Shown here: positions 14,744 through 54,964 of the stretch, piece after piece
How the letters are laid out: the number at the start of each line of letters is the position of its first letter
Position numbering within the stretch: the stretch's first letter is position 1
Assembly: GCA_021851785.1 (NCBI GenBank)
Contig: JAJZBV010000007.1
Span: 1-64,000, forward strand
Direction of reading: 5' to 3'
Length of the DNA: 64,000 nucleotides
Origin: Pseudomonadota bacterium
Lineage (GTDB): Bacteria; Pseudomonadota; Alphaproteobacteria; Acetobacterales; Acetobacteraceae
Notes under the pieces: generated by a model
Seen by the model: the letters and a program-made list of their open reading frames with translations, nothing else
Told to the model about the DNA's origin: nothing
The model's database searches: none
Program-made: the position numbers and the translations under genes

Positions 14744-15163
14744 ATGACGGACTGCGGAAAATCGCCCATGCCGGAGGAAGACGGCGCCAGGATCATTCAC
14801 AGGATCATTGACCGGGGGACGCCGGAATCAGCGGCCATGGTCGCCAACACCCGGCGGGCGATGGCGATCACCGCGGCGCTCAACCGTTTGACGTTCGACG
14901 ATGCCGATGAAATCCGCGCTCTGTTCAGCCGGCTCATCGGCAAAACGGTGGATGCGAGTTTTTTGCTGATCCCGCCTTTCTATACCGCCGGCGGGGACGA
15001 AATCCGCATCGGGCGCAATGTCTTCATCAATCAGAACTGCACGTTCTATGACCTCGGCGGCCTCGATATCGCGGACGATGTCATGATCGAGCCCAATGTC
15101 AGCCTCATCGCGGCGGGCCGCCCGCTCGCCGCCTCGGCGCGCCGTTCGCCAGGGGCTTCCTGA
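14744..15163 (+). pseudogene. Truncated hexapeptide-repeat acyltransferase
   Basis: 139 codons. MPEEDGARIIHRIIDRGTPESAAMVANTRRAMAITAALNRLTFDDADEIRALFSRLIGK is the helical N-terminus of maltose/galactoside O-acetyltransferase-like proteins. TAGGDEIRIGRNVFINQNCTFYDLGGLDIADDVMIEPNVSLIAAGRPL is the beginning of the left-handed beta-helix. Homologues continue past the GHP motif with further hexapeptide turns and the catalytic His; here the sequence becomes SARRSPGAS and stops, and permease sequence begins in another frame. It looks like a deletion joining the acyltransferase 5' part to the permease. Start may be 14744 or 14768. Confidence 0.7.
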
Positions 15164-16106
15164 CCGTGCTGGTCTCGACGCTGGCGCTGCTGGTGCTGTG
15201 CGCGATCTTCGCGCCTTCGGCCATCGCGCCGGGAGCGCTGGCCGGCAGCCTGCCGTTCGCGGCGGTGCTGGCGATCGTCGGGCTCGCGCAGATGCTCGTC
15301 GTGCAGCAGGGAGGGTTCGATCTCTCGCTCGCCGGGGCGTCTCGCTCGCGGTGGTGATCGCAACCCATGTCCCGGCCGGCGACAGCGCGGAATTGCCACG
15401 GGCCGTGCTGCTGGCGCTGGCCTGCGCGGCGGCGGCGGGGACGCTGAACGGGGTGCTGGTCAGTGTGCTGCGGCTCAACGCGATCGTCGCCACGATCGGG
15501 ATGAACGCGCTGATCTATGGCGGCGTCTTCGCGGTCTCGGGCGGGGTTCCACGCACCACGACGCCGCTTCTCGCCGCCATTGCCGGGGGCGAGACGCTCG
15601 GGATCGGCAACGCCCTATGGTTCGCGCTGGCGACCCTGATCCTCGTTGCGCTGGTCCTCAAGAAGACCGTCCTCGGCCGCCGGTTCGAGGCGATCGGGGC
15701 GAGCCCGCCCGCCGCGCGCGCCATCGGCCTCGGCGTCCGGCGCTACCAGATCACCGCCTATGTCTCCGCGCAGGGGCTCTACACCGTCGCCGGTCTGCTG
15801 ATCGCCGGCATCACCAAGGAGCCCACCGCGTTTCAAGGTGATCCGTTGCTGCTGCCCTCGGTCGCCGTCGTGGTGCTGGGCGGCACGTCGCTCCTCGGCG
15901 GCCGGGGCTTTCCGGTCTCGACCGTGATCGCGGCCTTCTTTCTCACCCAACTGAGCCAGTTCGCGCTCGCCATCGGCGTGCCCTACTCGGCCCAGACCAT
16001 CATTCAGGCGTTCGCGCTTGGATTAGGCATCGCGGTCTATTCGCTGCGGCTGCCCAAAGGCGTCAAAAAACTGGTGAAACCGTCAAACATGGAGGAACCG
16101 AGATGA
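15121..16106 (+). pseudogene. RbsC-type sugar ABC permease, truncated and frameshifted
   Basis: Frame 1 reads PFARGFLTVLVSTLALLVLCAIF...LPFAAVLAIVGLAQMLVVQQGGFDLSLAGA up to 15339 and then hits a stop at 15357. The rest, VSLAVVIATHVPAG...LGGRGFPVSTVIAAFFLTQLSQFALAIGVP..., continues in frame 3 to 16106. Adding one G (GGGGCG-G-TCTCG) restores QQGGFDLSLAGAVSLAVVIA, the conserved region of ribose-type permeases. The N-terminus is also missing, since sequence upstream belongs to the acyltransferase remnant. The stop overlaps the next start (ATGA), so the operon order is preserved. Either a true pseudogene or an assembly error for the frameshift part. Confidence 0.75.
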
Positions 16107-46418: not shown

Positions 46419-46562
46419 GCGCCGCCGGAGGGAATGCCCGGGATTGGACAATCCCGTCATGCTTCTGTAAGGAAACCGCGCCCATTCCCGCCGATCCCGC
46501 CTTCCGGGATCCCGGCGGACGTGGGCGGGTGGACTCGTCGGAATCAAGCAAGGAAATCTCTC

Positions 46563-47825
46563 GTGCAACACGTTGTTCCGGGCGATGTCGCCTGGGTTCT
46601 GGTCAGCACTGTCCTGGTGCTGCTGATGACGGTTCCCGGCCTTGCGCTGTTTTATGCCGGCATGGTCCGCAAGAAGAACGTGCTGGCGATCATGATGCAA
46701 TCCTTCATCCTGTGCGCCGCGATGACCGTCGTCTGGATGATCATCGGCTATTCGCTCGCCTTCACGAACGGCAATGCCTGGCTCGGTGATTTCTCGCGGC
46801 TGTTCCTGACCGGGCTCGCCGAGACCTGGGACAAGCCGTTCACGCTCGGCGCCGGAACCGCCGCGGCGCAGCCGACGACCATCCCGGAATCGGTATTCCT
46901 GATGTTCCAGATGGCTTTCGCCATCATCACCCCGGCGGTGGTGACCGGAAGCTGCGCCGACCGGATGAAGTTCTCGGCGCTGCTGGTGTTTTTCACGCTT
47001 TGGTCGCTGGTGGTCTATGCCCCGCTCGCGCATTGGGTCTGGGCGCCGAACGGTTGGCTCGCGCACATGGGCGTCGCGGATTTCGCCGGCGGCACGGTGG
47101 TGGAGATCAATTGCGGCATTTCCGGCCTGGTATGCGCGCTGATGCTCGGCCGGCGCCTCGGCTATGGCCAGGAGAACATGGCCCCCTGGAATCTCAGCTA
47201 CGCCGTGATCGGCGCCGCGCTGCTCTGGGTCGGCTGGATCGGGTTCAACTCCGGCGGCGCCATGGGGGCGAACGGGCGCGCCGGCCTCGCGGTGCTGGCG
47301 ACCCAGATCTCGGCCGCCGGCGGGACGCTGAGCTGGACCTTGGTCGAATGGTTCCTGCGCGGCAAACCCTCGGTCCTCGGGGCCATTTCCGGGGCCGTCG
47401 CCGGTCTCGTGGCGATCACCCCGGCGGCCGGCTTCGTCCTCCCCGGCATTGCGCTCGGCATCGGGCTGGTCGCCGGCGTGGTGTGTTTCTGGGCCACGAC
47501 CAGCCTCAAGGCGACGCTCGGCTATGACGACAGTCTCGACGCCTTCGGCGTGCATGGCGTCGGCGGCATCATCGGCACCCTCGCCACCGGCTGGTTCGCC
47601 TTCGGGCCGCTGACCGCGACGCCGGCCACCCCGGCCGGCGCCTATATCGGCGGGCCGCATCTTCTCGGCATCCAGGCGGTCGCGGTCGCGGCGACCATCC
47701 TCTGGTGCGGCGCGGCGAGCTGGGTTTTGCTGAAAATCACCGATCTCGCGGTCGGCCTTCGGGTCACGCGCGATCAAGAACGGGAAGGTCTCGACATCGT
47801 CCTCCACGGCGAGCAGGTTTTCTGA
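46563..47825 (+). CDS. amt: Ammonium transporter
   Basis: 420 residues from the GTG at 46563, with AAGGAAATCTCTC upstream; the track's longer form adds a non-homologous stretch. Eleven membrane segments are predicted by hydrophobicity. Family signatures include PGLALFYAGMVRKKNVLAIMMQSF, the signature region DFAGGTVVEINCGISGLVCALMLG, and the pore histidines in GVHGVGGIIGTLATG and the first DFAGG-proximal segment. It lies 144 bases after gltB, so ammonium uptake and GOGAT are clustered. The PII gene glnK, a frequent amt partner, is not here. Confidence 0.96.
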   Translation: MQHVVPGDVAWVLVSTVLVLLMTVPGLALFYAGMVRKKNVLAIMMQSFILCAAMTVVWMIIGYSLAFTNGNAWLGDFSRLFLTGLAETWDKPFTLGAGTAAAQPTTIPESVFLMFQMAFAIITPAVVTGSCADRMKFSALLVFFTLWSLVVYAPLAHWVWAPNGWLAHMGVADFAGGTVVEINCGISGLVCALMLGRRLGYGQENMAPWNLSYAVIGAALLWVGWIGFNSGGAMGANGRAGLAVLATQISAAGGTLSWTLVEWFLRGKPSVLGAISGAVAGLVAITPAAGFVLPGIALGIGLVAGVVCFWATTSLKATLGYDDSLDAFGVHGVGGIIGTLATGWFAFGPLTATPATPAGAYIGGPHLLGIQAVAVAATILWCGAASWVLLKITDLAVGLRVTRDQEREGLDIVLHGEQVF

Positions 47826-47898
47826 GCCGACAGCGCCGGACTTTCGCCGCGAATCGGTATAGCATCGCGCCGGCGCATACCCGCGCCGTTGGGGGCAT

Positions 47899-50703
47899 GG
47901 ATGCGGCTGAGCTGGAACGAAATCCGCGCGCGGGCGGCGCATTTCGCCGGGGAATGGCGGGATGCCCGCTATGAAAAGGGCGAGACGCAGAGTTTCTACA
48001 ACGAGTTTTCGATATTTTCGGCATCCGCCGCCGCCGCGTGGCGAGCTTCGAGGCGCCGGTGCGCGCGCTCGGCGGGCGGCGCGGCTTCCTCGACCTGTTC
48101 TGGAAAGGAACCCTCCTCATCGAGCAGAAAAGCGCCGGCCGCGATCTCAAACCGGCCAAGGCGCAGGCGCTGGAGTATTTCTCCGGCCTGAAGGAAGACG
48201 AGCTTCCCCGCTATCTGCTGCTTTCGGATTTTCAGACCTTCGAGCTTTACGATCTCGACGAGGGCACCGAGACCCGTTTTCCTCTCGCCGACCTTCCCCG
48301 CCATGTCGAGGCCTTCGGCTTCGTCATGGGGGTGCAGACACGCAGCTTCCGCGACCAGGATCCGGCCAATCTCCGCGCCTCGGCGCTCATGCAGAAACTG
48401 CACGATGCGTTGCGCGCCTCGGGATTCGGCGGCCATCCGCTGGAATTGTTCCTGGTGCGGCTGCTGTTTTGCCTGTTCGCCGATGACACCGGGATTTTCC
48501 CCGAGCGCGGGATGTTCCAGGCTTTCCTTGCCGAGCGCACCCGCACCGACGGCGGCGATACCGGCCCCCTGCTCGGCAAGCTCTTCGAGGTGCTGAACCA
48601 GCCGGAGGATCGCCGGCAGACGACGCTCGATGCCGATCTCGCGCTCTTTCCCTATGTCAACGGCGATCTGTTCGCCGAGCGTTTGCAGCTTCCGGATTTC
48701 GATTCGGGGATGCGCGGGCTGTTGCTCGCCGCCTGCGATTTCAACTGGGATGCGATTTCGCCGGCGATTTTCGGAGCCCTTTTCCAAGGCGTGATGACGC
48801 CGGGCGAGCGCCGCGCCAAGGGTGCCCATTACACCACCGAGAAAAACATCCTGAAAGTCATCGAGCCGCTGTTTCTCGATGATCTCCACACCGAGTTTTC
48901 CCGCCTCAAGGCGCGGCGCGGAAGCGCGCGCGAGCGGATGCTGCGCGCCTTTCACGACCGCCTCGCCGCGCTCAAATTCTTCGATCCCGCCTGCGGCTGC
49001 GGCAATTTCCTGGTCATCGCCTATCGTGAATTGGGACTCTGGAAATCGCGCTTTTGCGTGAATTACTGCCACAGGATCAGCGCGTGCTCGATGTCGCCCA
49101 TCTCTCGCGGATCGATGTCGATCAGTTCTTCGGCATCGAGATCGAGGAATTTCCGGCGCGCATCGCCGAGGTCGCGCTGTGGATGATGGACCACATCATG
49201 AACACTCGGCTCTCGCTCGCCTTCGGAGAATCCTATGCGCGGATTCCGCTGCAAAAATCGCCACATATCCACAATGTCGACGCGCTGGAGATCGATTGGA
49301 ACTCTGTCCTCCCGGCGGAAACCTGCGCCTATGTGTTTGGCAATCCGCCGTTCGTCGGCGCGAAATACCAGAGCGAGACGCAACGCGCGCAGGTGCGTCG
49401 TATCGCCGCGCTCGGCGGCGCCGGCGGGACGCTCGATTACGTCGCCGCGTGGTTTTTGCAAGCGGGTGCTTACGTCGGCGACCGTCCGATCCGCATCGGC
49501 TTCGTCGCCACCAATTCGCTGACCCAGGGCGAGCAGGTCGGCCAGTTCTGGCCGATCGTGTTCGACAAATTCCATCTCGAACTCGCCTTCGCCCATCGCA
49601 CCTTCGCCTGGGGGTCGGACGCGCCGGGGATGGCGCATGTGCATGTGGTGATCATCGGGCTGGCGCCGCGCGGGCGAGAGCCGGCGGAAAAACGCCTGTT
49701 CTCCTATGCCGACATCAAAGGCGAGCCGAGCTGCTCCCGCCACGCAGCACTTTCGCCCTATCTGATCGATGCCTCCAGTCTCACCGACCGGCATCTGGTG
49801 GTGCGGAAAGTGAGTAAGCCGCTCAGCGGTGCGCCAAGGCTCATAAGCGGAACGCAGCCGATCGATGATGGGAGCTATATTTTTAATGAAGAAGAACGTG
49901 CGGATTTCCTACGCCAAGAGCCCGAAGCGGATGCCTTCCTTCACCCTTTCATTGGCACAGACGAATTTCTCTACGATATCAAGCGCTGGATTTTGAACCT
50001 CGAAAGCGCAACTCCAAACCAACTTGCCAGAATGCCGCATATCAAAACGCGGATGCGGGCAGTTCGTCAATATAGACACAAAAGCAAACGCAATAGCACA
50101 CTCGAAATTGCGGATTATCCTGAACGTTACAATGTATGTGTCATTCCCGACCGCCCTTTTCTGGTGATCCCCGAAGTCAGCTCCGAGCGGCGGGATTACA
50201 TCCCGATCGGCTGGCTGCAACCGCCGGTCATCCCGAGCAACCTCGTTCGCGTGATGCTCGATGCGACGCTCTGGCATTTCGGCATCCTGACCTCGGCGAT
50301 GCACATGGCCTGGACGCGCCAGATCGGCGGACGGTTGAAGAGCGATTATCGCTATTCGATCGGCCTGGTTTACAATACTTTTCCCTGGCCGGAGGCAAAG
50401 GCGGCCGAGCGCCGGCGGATCGAGGCGCTGGCGCAAGCAGTACTCGAGGCGCGGGCAAAATTTCCCGGCGCGACGCTGGCCGCGCTTTACGATCCCGATC
50501 TGATGAAACCCGCCCTCCGCCGCGCCCATGCGGCGCTCGACCGCGCGGTGGACCGGCTCTATCGCCCCGCCCCGTTCGCGTCCGAGCGCGAGCGCGTCGA
50601 ACATCTGTTCGCGCTTTATGAACGCCAAAGCGCGCCGGCGCTGGCCGCGATGCAGCCCGCCCCCAAACCCACCCCGAAGCGGCGCAAACCCCGCCCCGTC
50701 TAG
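47899..50703 (+). pseudogene. MmeI-like fused restriction-methyltransferase, broken by two frameshifts
   Basis: Three track ORFs join into one protein of about 935 residues. Part 1, MRLSWNEIRARAAHFAGEWRDARYEKGETQSFYNEF, is followed after a missing base near 48006 by FDIFGIRRRRVASFEAPVRALGGRRGFLDLFWKGTLLIEQKSAGRDL, containing a D-(n)-ExK nuclease motif. Part 2 carries SAM motif FFDPACGCGNFLVIAYREL; after a second missing base near 49033 part 3 continues TLEIALLRELLPQ...FGIEIEEFPARIAEVALWMMDH with the NPPF motif (YVFGNPPFVGAKYQ) and the target-recognition region. Order and length fit type IIL MmeI-family enzymes, which cut and methylate in one chain. It is inactive if the frameshifts are real. 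Confidence 0.8.
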
Positions 50704-50710
50704 CGCCTCT

Positions 50711-53047
50711 TCACGCCGCCTGCATGGCCGCGAGGAAGCTCTCCACCTCCTCGCGGAGCGTGCCGGATTGCTGCGCGAGGTCGTCGGCGGCGGCCAGCAC
50801 CTCGGCCGAGCGGGCGCGGGTTTCGCCGACCGCGCCGCTGACCTCGGCGATGTTCTCCGTCACCTCCCCGGTGCCGCGCGCCGCCTGCTGCACGGCGCGG
50901 GCGATTTCCTGCGTCGTCGCCCCCTGCTCCTCGACCGCGGCGGCGATGGCGGCGGCGATTTCGTCGAGCCGCTGGATGGTGCCGCTCACCGCGCGGAGGG
51001 TGGTGACGGCGGCCTTGGTCTCGTCCTGCATGGTCGCGATCTGGGTGGAGATTTCCTCCGTCGCGCGGGCGGTTTGGCTCGCGAGCGATTTCACCTCGTT
51101 CGCGACAACCGCGAAGCCGCGCCCGGCCTCGCCCGCCCGCGCCGCCTCGATGGTGGCGTTGAGGGCGAGCAGATTGGTGTGGGCGGCGATATCGCCGATC
51201 AGCCGGACGACGCCGCCGATGCGGCTCGCCTGATCGTTGAGGCTGACGACGCAGCGATCGGTCGCCTCCGCCTTGCTCACCGCGTCGGAGGCGATGCGCG
51301 CGCTCTCGGCGACGCTGCGGCTGATTTCGCTGACCGAGGCGGCCATCTGCTCGGCGCTCGCGGCCACCGCCTGGACGTTGCCGGCGGCCTCGCGCGAGGC
51401 GCTGGCGACCGCTTCCGCCCGCGCCCCGGTATCGGCGGCGAGGCCGGCCAAGCCATTGGCCGCGCCCCGCATCTCGCCGGCCGAGCGGCCGAATGCCGCC
51501 GCGATCTCGCCGACCGAATTCTTGAACCGCTCGGCGAGCCGCGCCTCGCGCGTCACCGGGACGATGGTCAGCATCGGGCCGTAGAAGCGGCCATCGGCGC
51601 TCGTCAACGCCGAGGCCTGGATATCCAGCGTCTCGCCGCCGATCGCGACGCGCTCGCGATAGGGGAGCGACGCGGCGCCGCCGGTGAGCGCCGTCTCCAG
51701 CCCCGGCGTCCGGGCGAAACGCGCGAGGCTCTGCCCGGCGAGAGCGTCGGCGCGGAGATCGAGGAGAGCGGCGATCGGCGCCAGAACGTCGCGCGTCGCC
51801 GGGCTCGCGTACGAAATCGCGAGCTTATGGGCGGCGTCGGCGACGAGAACGCAAAGCGGCAACTGGTCGAGGGTCTGGCGCTGGAGAAACGCCTGTTCGG
51901 CGGTCTGGCGCAGCCGCTCCAGCGCCGCCGCCATGCGGCCGATCTCATCCCGCCTTCCGGCGAAGCCGATTTCCATGCCGGTATCGCCCTCGGCGAGGCG
52001 GGCGAGCATCGCGGTCATGGCGCGGATCGGCCGGGCGATGGCGCGCGCGGTCAGCGTCGAGGTCACGATCAGAATCGCGGTGATGCCGAGCGCGAGGCCG
52101 ACCAGCGTCCGCCGCAGCCCCGCCCCGGCCCGCCCCGCCTCCGCCCGCGCCGCCTCCGCCTGGCGCGTCACCAGCGCATCGGCGGCATCGAGGCTCGCGC
52201 GCGCCGCGGCGCTGCTGGCGGCGAGATCATGGGCGAGGAATTGCTGCGCGCTCGCGGTGCCGGCGACGAGGTCGGCGCTGGCGGCGAGAATGGCGTTGCC
52301 GCTCTGCTCCATGGCGGCGAAGGCGGCGGCGGCGTCCTTGGCGACGCCCTCGTCATGCGCCGCGTGCAGCAGCGCGTCCGCGATCTTGGTGTTGAGCTGC
52401 ATCGATTTCGCCGCCGCCTCGTCGCCGGTGTTCATGTTGAGGAGGGCGGCGTTGCCGGCATCGATCACCGCGCGTTGATAGCGCGTGAGCCGCGCCTTGT
52501 TGCGGTCGGCGGCTTCCGGCGACATGTCCTCGAGATGCATCCGGTCCAGCGTCACCGAGACCAGTTGGTTGATCGCCGCGAGCTGCGGCAGCAGACCCTG
52601 TTCGCGGCGGCCGAGCAGCGCCTCGCGGGCGGCCAGCGCATGGCCGATGGCGGCGGCCTCGGCGGTGTTGTCGGCGCTCGCGCGGGTGAAGGCGGCGATA
52701 TCGGCTTGGGTCGCGGTCGCGGCGGCGCCGTGGCCGCGCCCGCCGGCGAGGCCGCCCGTGGCGAGGCCATCGGCGAGCGCGGTCAGCTCGGCCTTGGCGG
52801 CGGCGATCTGCGGCGCGGTCTGGAGCAGGGCGATGCGCGCGGCGAGCGCGTCGAGATCATGGCGGCGCTGGCCGGCCATGTCGATCACCGCCTTGGCGGC
52901 GACGGCGCCCGACGCCTCGGCATCCAGCCGCTCGAGCCGGGCGAGGCCGGAGAACATGGAGACCGCGAGACCGCCGAGCAAGAGCAGCGCGCAGGCCGCC
53001 GAAAGCGCCAGTTTCCGGCTGATCGAAAGATTCCGCAAAGTCAGCAT
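50711..53047 (-). CDS. Methyl-accepting chemotaxis protein
   Basis: 778 residues from [13 protein letters not shown] (a GTG at 53068 is possible). Membrane helices lie at about 13-35 ([22 protein letters not shown]) and 315-340 ([19 protein letters not shown]), with a helical sensor region between. A HAMP domain ([23 protein letters not shown]), a PAS-like segment ([30 protein letters not shown]) and the signalling domain follow. The hairpin tip reads [42 protein letters not shown]. No CheW/CheA genes are near. The insertion of a PAS-like domain between HAMP and signalling parts is uncommon but known. Confidence 0.93.
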
Positions 53048-53158
53048 CGCCCAAACCACCCCTTCCACACCTCACCGGCGGGGATTAAGCCATTCACCGC
53101 TTAAACAAGCGTGAACGCGGAGTTGGCGCGGCGGGCGCGGGGTGCCATAAAACCATCG

Positions 53159-53827
53159 ATGCGCACGCTCCATCACCATCCCGTCTGCCCCTATTCGCGC
53201 AAGATCCGCCTTCTGCTCGCCGAAAAGCGACTCGGTTTCGAGGTCAGGCTGGAAAAGCCGTGGGAGCGGCGCGAGGCCTATCTCGCCCTCAATCCCGCCG
53301 GCCTGGTGCCGACGCTGATCGAGGATAACGGCCTGGTCGTGCCCGATTCGGCGGTGATCGCGGAATATCTCGACGAGGCCTATCCCGACACCTCGCTGAT
53401 GGGCCGGACGCTGGCCGAGCGCGTCGAGGTGCGGCGCCTGGTCGCCTGGTTCGATGGCCGCTTCGCCCAGGATGTCACGCGCAACCTGCTCGAGGAAAAG
53501 CTGATGAAGCGCCTCGCCGGGCGCGGCCATCCCGATTCGGGCCTGCTCCGCCTCGGCTATGCCGGTTTGCGCGAGCATCTGCGCTATCTCGGCTGGCTCG
53601 CCGAGACGCGGAAATTCCTCGCCGGCGGCACCATCTCGCTCGCCGATTTCGCCGCCGCCGCCCATCTCTCGGCGCTCGATTTCGCCGGCGAGGTGGATTG
53701 GAGCCTCTCCGCGGCGGCGCGCGAATGGTATGCGCGGATGAAAAGCCGGCCGAGCTTCCGCGCCCTGCTCGCCGACCGCCTCCCCGGCGTCACGCCACCG
53801 GCGCATTACGCCGATCTCGATTTCTAG
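53159..53827 (+). CDS. fzlA: GST-like FtsZ-localised protein FzlA
   Basis: 222 residues from the ATG at 53159. The thioredoxin-like half MRTLHHHPVCPYSRKIRLLLAEKRLGFEVRLEKPWERREAYLALNPAGLVPTLIEDNGLVVPDSAVIAEYL and the helical half RRLVAWFDGRFAQDVTRNLLEEKLMKRLAGRGHPDSGLLR...WLAETRKFLAGGTISLADFAAAAHLSALDF strongly resemble Caulobacter FzlA as I recall it. FzlA binds FtsZ filaments and is needed for constriction, without glutathione transferase activity. Ordinary GST is the fallback. It is 18 bases upstream of the FMN oxidase gene. Confidence 0.82.
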   Translation: MRTLHHHPVCPYSRKIRLLLAEKRLGFEVRLEKPWERREAYLALNPAGLVPTLIEDNGLVVPDSAVIAEYLDEAYPDTSLMGRTLAERVEVRRLVAWFDGRFAQDVTRNLLEEKLMKRLAGRGHPDSGLLRLGYAGLREHLRYLGWLAETRKFLAGGTISLADFAAAAHLSALDFAGEVDWSLSAAAREWYARMKSRPSFRALLADRLPGVTPPAHYADLDF

Positions 53828-53845
53828 CCAGAAGGCAAACCTGCC

Positions 53846-54964
53846 ATGAGCAAAAAAACCAAGGAAACGCCCGAGACGCTCGCTGAACGCTTCCAGGCGC
53901 TGCACGAATTCATCCCCGCCGCCGAGCGCGCTCTGTCGCGCGAGATCTGGGGCTATCTGATCGGCGGCGCCGAGACCGAGACCACGGTTGCGCGGAACCG
54001 CGCCGCGCTCGATGCGCTGGCGCTCCGCCCGCGCGTCTTGCGCGATGTCAGCGCGGTGAGCGCGGCGGCGACGTTTCTCGGCCATCATCTCCGTCTCCCG
54101 GTCGCCCTCGCCCCGGTCGGCTCGCTCGAATCCTTCCACCAGGAGGCCGGCGCCGCCGTCGCCCGCGCCGCCTCCCGCTTCGGCGTGCCGTTCCTGCTCA
54201 GTTCGGTCTCGAAGCCGAGCCTGGAGGAGGCGGCAAAGGCGGCCGGGGCGGGCCCGCGGATTTTCCAGCTCTATGTCCGCGGCGACGGAGCTTGGGTCGA
54301 TGACCACGTCGCCCGCGCCGTCGATGCCGGCTATGATGCGTTCTGCCTCACCGTCGATACCGCCCATTACAGCCGCCGCGAGCGCGACATCGCCAACCGC
54401 TTCGTCAAGCCCTGGCGCGCCAACCCCGACCACGCCGCGATGGCCTTCCAGGCGGCGCTCAACTGGGACGATGTCCGGCGCTTCAAGGACCGTCACGCCA
54501 TCCCGCTGATCCTCAAGGGCATCGCGACGGCCGAGGACGCGGCGCTGGCCGCCGAACTCGGGGCCGAGTTCATCTATGTCTCCAACCATGGCGGGCGCCA
54601 GCTCGATTTCGGGCTCGGGGCCATCGCCATGCTGCCGGAGATCGCCGCGGCGGTGCGCGGGCGGGCGCGGATCATCGTCGATGGCGGGTTTTCGCGCGGC
54701 ACCGATATCGTCAAGGCGATCGCCCTCGGCGCCGATCTGGTCGGGCTCGGGCGGCTCTATCTCTACGGCCTCGCGGCGGCGGGGGCGGCGGGGATCGGGC
54801 GGGTGCTGGAATTGCTGGAGGACGAAATGCGGGTGGCGCTCGGCCTGCTCGGGGCGCCCGACCTCGCCTGCCTCCATCCCGGCTTCGTCACCGCCGCCCC
54901 GGCGATGGTCGCGCCACACGTCCACAGCGCCTTTCCGCTCCGCGATTTCAGGCCCGGGCGATGA
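53846..54964 (+). CDS. FMN-dependent alpha-hydroxyacid oxidase/dehydrogenase
   Basis: 372 residues, TIM-barrel of the LldD/glycolate-oxidase family. FMN and substrate contacts include LALAPVGSLESFHQEAG, QLYVRGD, LTVDTAHYSRRERD, and LILKGIATAEDAALAAELGAEFIYVSNHGGRQLD, where the HGGRQLD His is the catalytic base. VDGGFSRGTDIVKAIALGADLVGLGR binds phosphate. The activity is probably oxidation of an (S)-2-hydroxyacid such as lactate or glycolate; the exact substrate is open. ATG overlap with the next gene indicates coupling. Confidence 0.9.
   Translation: MSKKTKETPETLAERFQALHEFIPAAERALSREIWGYLIGGAETETTVARNRAALDALALRPRVLRDVSAVSAAATFLGHHLRLPVALAPVGSLESFHQEAGAAVARAASRFGVPFLLSSVSKPSLEEAAKAAGAGPRIFQLYVRGDGAWVDDHVARAVDAGYDAFCLTVDTAHYSRRERDIANRFVKPWRANPDHAAMAFQAALNWDDVRRFKDRHAIPLILKGIATAEDAALAAELGAEFIYVSNHGGRQLDFGLGAIAMLPEIAAAVRGRARIIVDGGFSRGTDIVKAIALGADLVGLGRLYLYGLAAAGAAGIGRVLELLEDEMRVALGLLGAPDLACLHPGFVTAAPAMVAPHVHSAFPLRDFRPGR

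What the first reader, a model, noticed from the sequence alone, without database searches (positions are those of the whole stretch)
47899..50703. MmeI-like RM gene split into three frames
Three ORFs join into one enzyme with nuclease (FLDLFWKGTLLIEQKS), methyltransferase (DPACGCGNF, NPPF) and recognition parts if one base is added near 48006 (GAGTTT-T-TCGAT) and one near 49033 (GAATTG-G-GGACT). In type IIL enzymes the single chain needs all parts, so the host would have lost both cutting and methylation together, a safe way to inactivate.
Basis: partly seen in the sequence, partly recalled or inferred. Interest (0 to 1): 0.5.

Follow-up and report, generated by a model that had tools for sequence, protein, structure and literature searches.

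The report
Recently broken MmeI-type restriction enzyme gene
A lone gene for a well-known kind of bacterial DNA-cutting-and-marking enzyme (MmeI family) has been knocked out by two one-letter deletions; a sister species has lost its copy differently, through a jumping gene, so this looks like ordinary turnover of a defence gene.

Summary
Window 47901-50703 encodes one type IIL (MmeI-family) restriction-modification enzyme split over three frames by two single-base deletions. All five MmeI Pfam domains are present in order, and the two main fragments match solved MmeI (5HR4). Lesion 1 is a lost T at 48006-48009.

The frame break is most likely real and recent. Of 80 related loci, 71 run full length. 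Of 38 genes shared with a congener only one other is frameshifted, itself already truncated. The sister species G005 reads through both sites, but its gene is split by an IS1595-family element with an 8-bp target duplication. G000-G005 divergence shows purifying selection (omega about 0.13), and nuclease, methyltransferase and specificity residues are kept. Sequencing error cannot be excluded without reads.

The "safe joint loss" idea fits single-chain biology, but two lesions permit a stepwise path, and nothing shows selection for inactivation. Ordinary pseudogene of a known family.

The parts
47901..48191 (+). Fragment A: true start (ATG) and first 36 codons of the MmeI-like gene, then 60 out-of-frame codons to a stop
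   Evidence: the first 36 residues align with the N-terminus of relatives and of G005
48006..48009 (+). Lesion 1: T4 where G005 has T5 (one-base deletion); Phe (72) or Leu (1) at this residue in 73 relatives
48038..49186 (+). Fragment B: rest of the nuclease domain, helical spacer and start of the methyltransferase
   Evidence: Pfam MmeI_N, MmeI_hel, MmeI_Mtase positions 6-41; PADLOC REase_MTase_IIG 3.6e-123; 5HR4 residues 65-381
48083..48133 (+). PD-(D/E)XK nuclease motif GFLDLFWKGTLLIEQKS (D codon 48092, E 48122, K 48128), intact
   Evidence: Corresponds to MmeI D70/E80/K82 (PMC4833311); D-E-K in 72 of 73 relatives
48983..49009 (+). Methyltransferase motif I, DPACGCGNF
   Evidence: Sequence; gamma-class motif I in PMC4833311
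49033..49034 (+). Lesion 2: C missing between these two bases (Arg codon; Arg in 81/81 relatives)
49054..50703 (+). Fragment C: rest of the methyltransferase (NPPF at 49342-49353), recognition domain, C-terminal domain
49789..50394 (+). Target recognition domain; MmeI-equivalent specificity residues E751, N773, L774, K806, D808, R810
   Evidence: MmeI_TRD
47829..50710 (.). Single-gene segment at a synteny breakpoint between amtB (46434-47825) and an MCP gene (50711-53068, minus strand)
   Evidence: In G001 and G003 the alignments stop at 47828/47826 and start again at 50711 in unlinked places

Best explanation
The locus is a solitary, probably horizontally acquired type IIL (MmeI-family) restriction-modification gene, recently turned into a pseudogene by two single-base deletions. 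Ancestrally one ~933-residue chain would bind a ~6-bp site, methylate one adenine and cut about 20 bp away. It now yields at most a 96-residue peptide and unconnected fragments: lesion 1 cuts off the true N-terminus of the nuclease domain, and lesion 2 splits methyltransferase motif I from motif IV and from the recognition domain. Neither cutting nor methylation is expected. Shown: domain content, lesions, intact relatives, purifying selection, independent IS disruption in the sister species. Inferred: loss of activity, recency, acquisition by transfer.
For: Domain order and continuity across the breaks. 71 of 80 related loci give one full-length tblastn match; 7 are cut by contig ends or locus edges. 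In-frame reading at both sites in G005 and L025. The G005 copy is interrupted by an IS with inverted ends CCTGATTACGCA, 8-bp duplication ATGTTTTT and an IS1595/ISXO2 transposase match. omega 0.13 between G000 and G005 with no further stop. Paired specificity residues stay coherent. Frameshifts are sparse in sampled G000 DNA: one other among 38 genes shared with G003, few in 433 kb, so two in one 2.8-kb gene by a uniform error rate has P of about 0.0002-0.002. Different genomic addresses in G000 and G005, no match in G002-G004.
Against: No reads were available, so each missing base could be an assembly error; lesion 1 is in a short T run. The frameshift detector is imperfect (it missed lesion 1 and the break near 15336). 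Activity was not tested. No second genome of the same species was available.
Confidence: 0.8

Rival explanations
1. The gene is intact and active in the organism; the two missing bases are sequencing or assembly errors.
For: No extra stop or other damage; catalytic and specificity residues intact; omega about 0.13; single-base indels.
Against: Two independent indels within 1.03 kb, while only one other frameshift was found among 38 genes shared with G003; lesion 2 is loss of a C in TTGCGG, not a homopolymer contraction; the sister copy is also dead, by an IS.
Confidence: 0.15
2. The three ORFs are expressed separately and reassemble into a working split enzyme.
For: Split DNA methyltransferases exist (general knowledge, not tested here); nearly all residues of the enzyme are still encoded.
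Against: Fragment B's first usual start codon is GTG 48038, losing about 45 N-terminal residues; fragments A and B end in long out-of-frame tails; no relative seen has this arrangement; the lesions are absent from the sister species.
Confidence: 0.03
3. Phase-variable or programmed frameshifting restores the full enzyme in some cells.
For: Phase-variable type IIG genes are known in other bacteria (general knowledge).
Against: No long repeat tract: T4 and GGG only; GAG TTT TCG and TTG GGA CTC are not X-XXY-YYZ slippery sites; two independent corrections would be needed at once; relatives read straight through.
Confidence: 0.02

Closest known systems
MmeI (type IIL, PDB 5HR4)
   Same: Five-domain order; D-x9-E-x-K; FDPACGCGNF; NPPF; equivalents of His314 and Trp570; near end-to-end match by fragments
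   Different: Two frameshifts; different specificity residues (K806/D808, L774, R723, S642, Q645 against E/R, A, A, Y, K in MmeI)
PADLOC REase_MTase_IIG PDLC03598
   Same: Fragment B matches profile positions 48-382, fragment C 397-907 of 912
   Different: Interrupted between 382 and 397 by lesion 2
G005 orthologue (same genus, about 85% DNA identity)
   Same: Same gene, 934 codons when read across the insertion target
   Different: No frameshifts; split in the recognition domain by an IS1595-family element; other genomic place, near tRNA-Arg(CCG); position-3 pair K/D instead of E/N

Membership tests
Type IIL (MmeI family) RM enzyme | MmeI_N, hel, Mtase, TRD, C domains in order in one gene | tested here: met
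   all above curated cut-offs; spread over the frames
Type IIL (MmeI family) RM enzyme | Single PD-(D/E)XK catalytic site near the N-terminus | tested here: met
   GFLDLFWKGTLLIEQKS aligned with MmeI D70/E80/K82
Type IIL (MmeI family) RM enzyme | Gamma-class N6A methyltransferase motifs, conserved His314 and Trp570 | tested here: met
   DPACGCGNF, NPPF, GAHYT, HRTFAW; H/W in 79/79 relatives that cover both sites
Type IIL (MmeI family) RM enzyme | One uninterrupted reading frame | tested here: not met
   Two single-base deletions: a pseudogene of the family, not a working member
Type IIL (MmeI family) RM enzyme | Cuts about 20/18 downstream and methylates the adenine of one strand | not testable with these tools
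   Needs biochemistry or methylome data
Phase-variable RM gene | Hypermutable repeat tract in or before the gene | tested here: not met
   T4 and G3 only at the breaks

The most novel reading that the evidence does not exclude
The split is functional: separately translated pieces reassemble, for example into a methylation-only enzyme lacking the native nuclease N-terminus.
Probability: 0.03. Interest if true: 0.5.

Novelty: new member of a known kind. Interest (0 to 1): 0.15.

Why it matters
Mostly a clean example of how single-chain RM genes turn over: two sister species hold the same enzyme at different places and have lost it by independent lesions. The pair also shows a two-residue change at the position-3 recognition pair (E/N against K/D) between close orthologues, which could be tested biochemically. 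For annotation, this locus should not be counted as an active defence system or methylation source.

Tried and rejected
NCBIfam gave no hits. Most of its flagged sites were overlapping genes on inspection, with one clear further frameshift (acyl-CoA synthetase-like, L150 about 17109). Programmed frameshifting and phase variation were considered and rejected on sequence grounds. A reciprocal rearrangement explaining the synteny break was sought: the neighbours of amtB and of the MCP gene in G003 lie on contigs C65 and C51 here, but the event was not reconstructed. I did not try structure prediction because the solved homologue covers the chain.

Full report
What is there. Window 47901-50703 (+) holds one MmeI-like gene in three frames. 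Fragment B (48038-49183) matches Pfam MmeI_N, MmeI_hel and the first 41 positions of MmeI_Mtase; fragment C (49054-50700) matches the remaining MmeI_Mtase, MmeI_TRD and MmeI_C. PADLOC calls both type IIG RM enzyme, with profile positions 48-382 and 397-907 of 912. Both match MmeI 5HR4, at residues 65-381 and 391-904.

The lesions. Of 80 related loci, 71 give one full-length match and seven others are cut by contig ends or locus edges. At lesion 1 relatives have Phe (72) or Leu (1); the window has TTTT where G005 has TTTTT. Three relatives have breaks of their own: L103 (stop and frameshift), L062 (internal deletion and frameshift) and L086 (internal stop). Decay therefore recurs at a low level in this family.

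Error or mutation. About 50 kb of the window aligns with congener G003. Among 38 shared ORFs only one other frameshift was seen in this genome: near 15336, in an ABC permease gene that is also truncated at its 5' end. A codon-usage scan of 433 kb found ten candidate sites, most of them overlapping genes on inspection. At such rates two hits in one 2.8-kb gene have a probability of about 0.0002-0.002 under uniform error. This favours real mutation but does not replace reads.

The sister species. G005 carries the same gene (83-86% identical) with no frameshift at either site, but on two contigs whose gene parts overlap by ATGTTTTT. The parts end in the inverted repeat CCTGATTACGCA, and one leads into an IS1595/ISXO2 transposase fragment. 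The gene is therefore interrupted by an IS in its recognition domain. Two sister species hold independently broken copies at different addresses: between amtB and an MCP gene here, about 100-200 bp from tRNA-Arg(CCG) there. G002-G004 have no match, and G001 only a distant one.

How recent. Between G000 and G005 dS is 0.62 and dN 0.081, omega 0.13. Polarised by L025, the window branch has 54.7 nonsynonymous to 97.3 synonymous changes, against 50.5 to 114.5 on the G005 branch. Most of the divergence happened under purifying selection and there are no further stops, so inactivation is recent. Residues equivalent to MmeI D70/E80/K82, His314, Trp570 and NPPF are intact.

Specificity. By the published MmeI code (PMC4833311) the window's residues 751/773 = E/N, 774/810 = L/R and 806/808 = K/D predict C, G, A, G at positions 3-6. 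G005 and L025 have K/D at 751/773, predicting G at position 3. In the relatives, 806/808 is always K/D or E/R (80/80), and E/N, K/D or R/D dominate at 751/773. The window's coherent pairs are what a recently functional enzyme would have.

Mechanism and interpretation. In a working copy one chain would recognise the site, methylate one adenine, and cut with the N-terminal nuclease about 20 bp away (established for MmeI, PMC4833311). Here lesion 2 alone removes methylation and recognition from the upstream chain, and lesion 1 cuts off the N-terminus. Joint loss is the expected end state, but the order of lesions is unknown and a restriction-minus, modification-plus intermediate after lesion 1 alone is conceivable. 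Joint loss is a consequence of the single chain and should be harmless to the host; selection for it was not shown. RM genes interrupted by mobile elements or carrying frameshifts are already a recognised class in REBASE, and surveys set them aside (PMC4176335), so this is not new in kind.

Noticed in passing
window 15100-16106: ABC-transporter permease gene truncated at its 5' end next to an acetyltransferase-like fragment, with a one-base deletion near 15336 relative to congener G003: a second pseudogene in the window.
   Followed up: partly
L132:8637-11963 (G000 contig C43): Intact 1108-aa distant MmeI-family enzyme in the same genome (MmeI_N, hel, Mtase, TRD; nuclease-like GRIDLYKRGCFVLEAKQ), so the host still has a complete single-chain RM gene.
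   Followed up: partly
window 50173 and 50239 against G005, L025, L026, L053: The position-3 specificity pair toggles between E/N and K/D among close relatives (G000/G005, L026/L053), a natural two-residue change in predicted recognition.
   Followed up: partly
window 47829-50710: The gene sits exactly at a chromosomal synteny breakpoint; amtB and the MCP gene are unlinked in G001 and G003.
   Followed up: partly
L150 about 17109: Apparent frameshift in an acyl-CoA synthetase (ADP-forming)-like gene of the same genome.
   Followed up: no
window 53111-54964 against L127:4383-6254: GST-like and FMN-dependent dehydrogenase genes are separate here but lie in one continuous open frame in G003.
   Followed up: no
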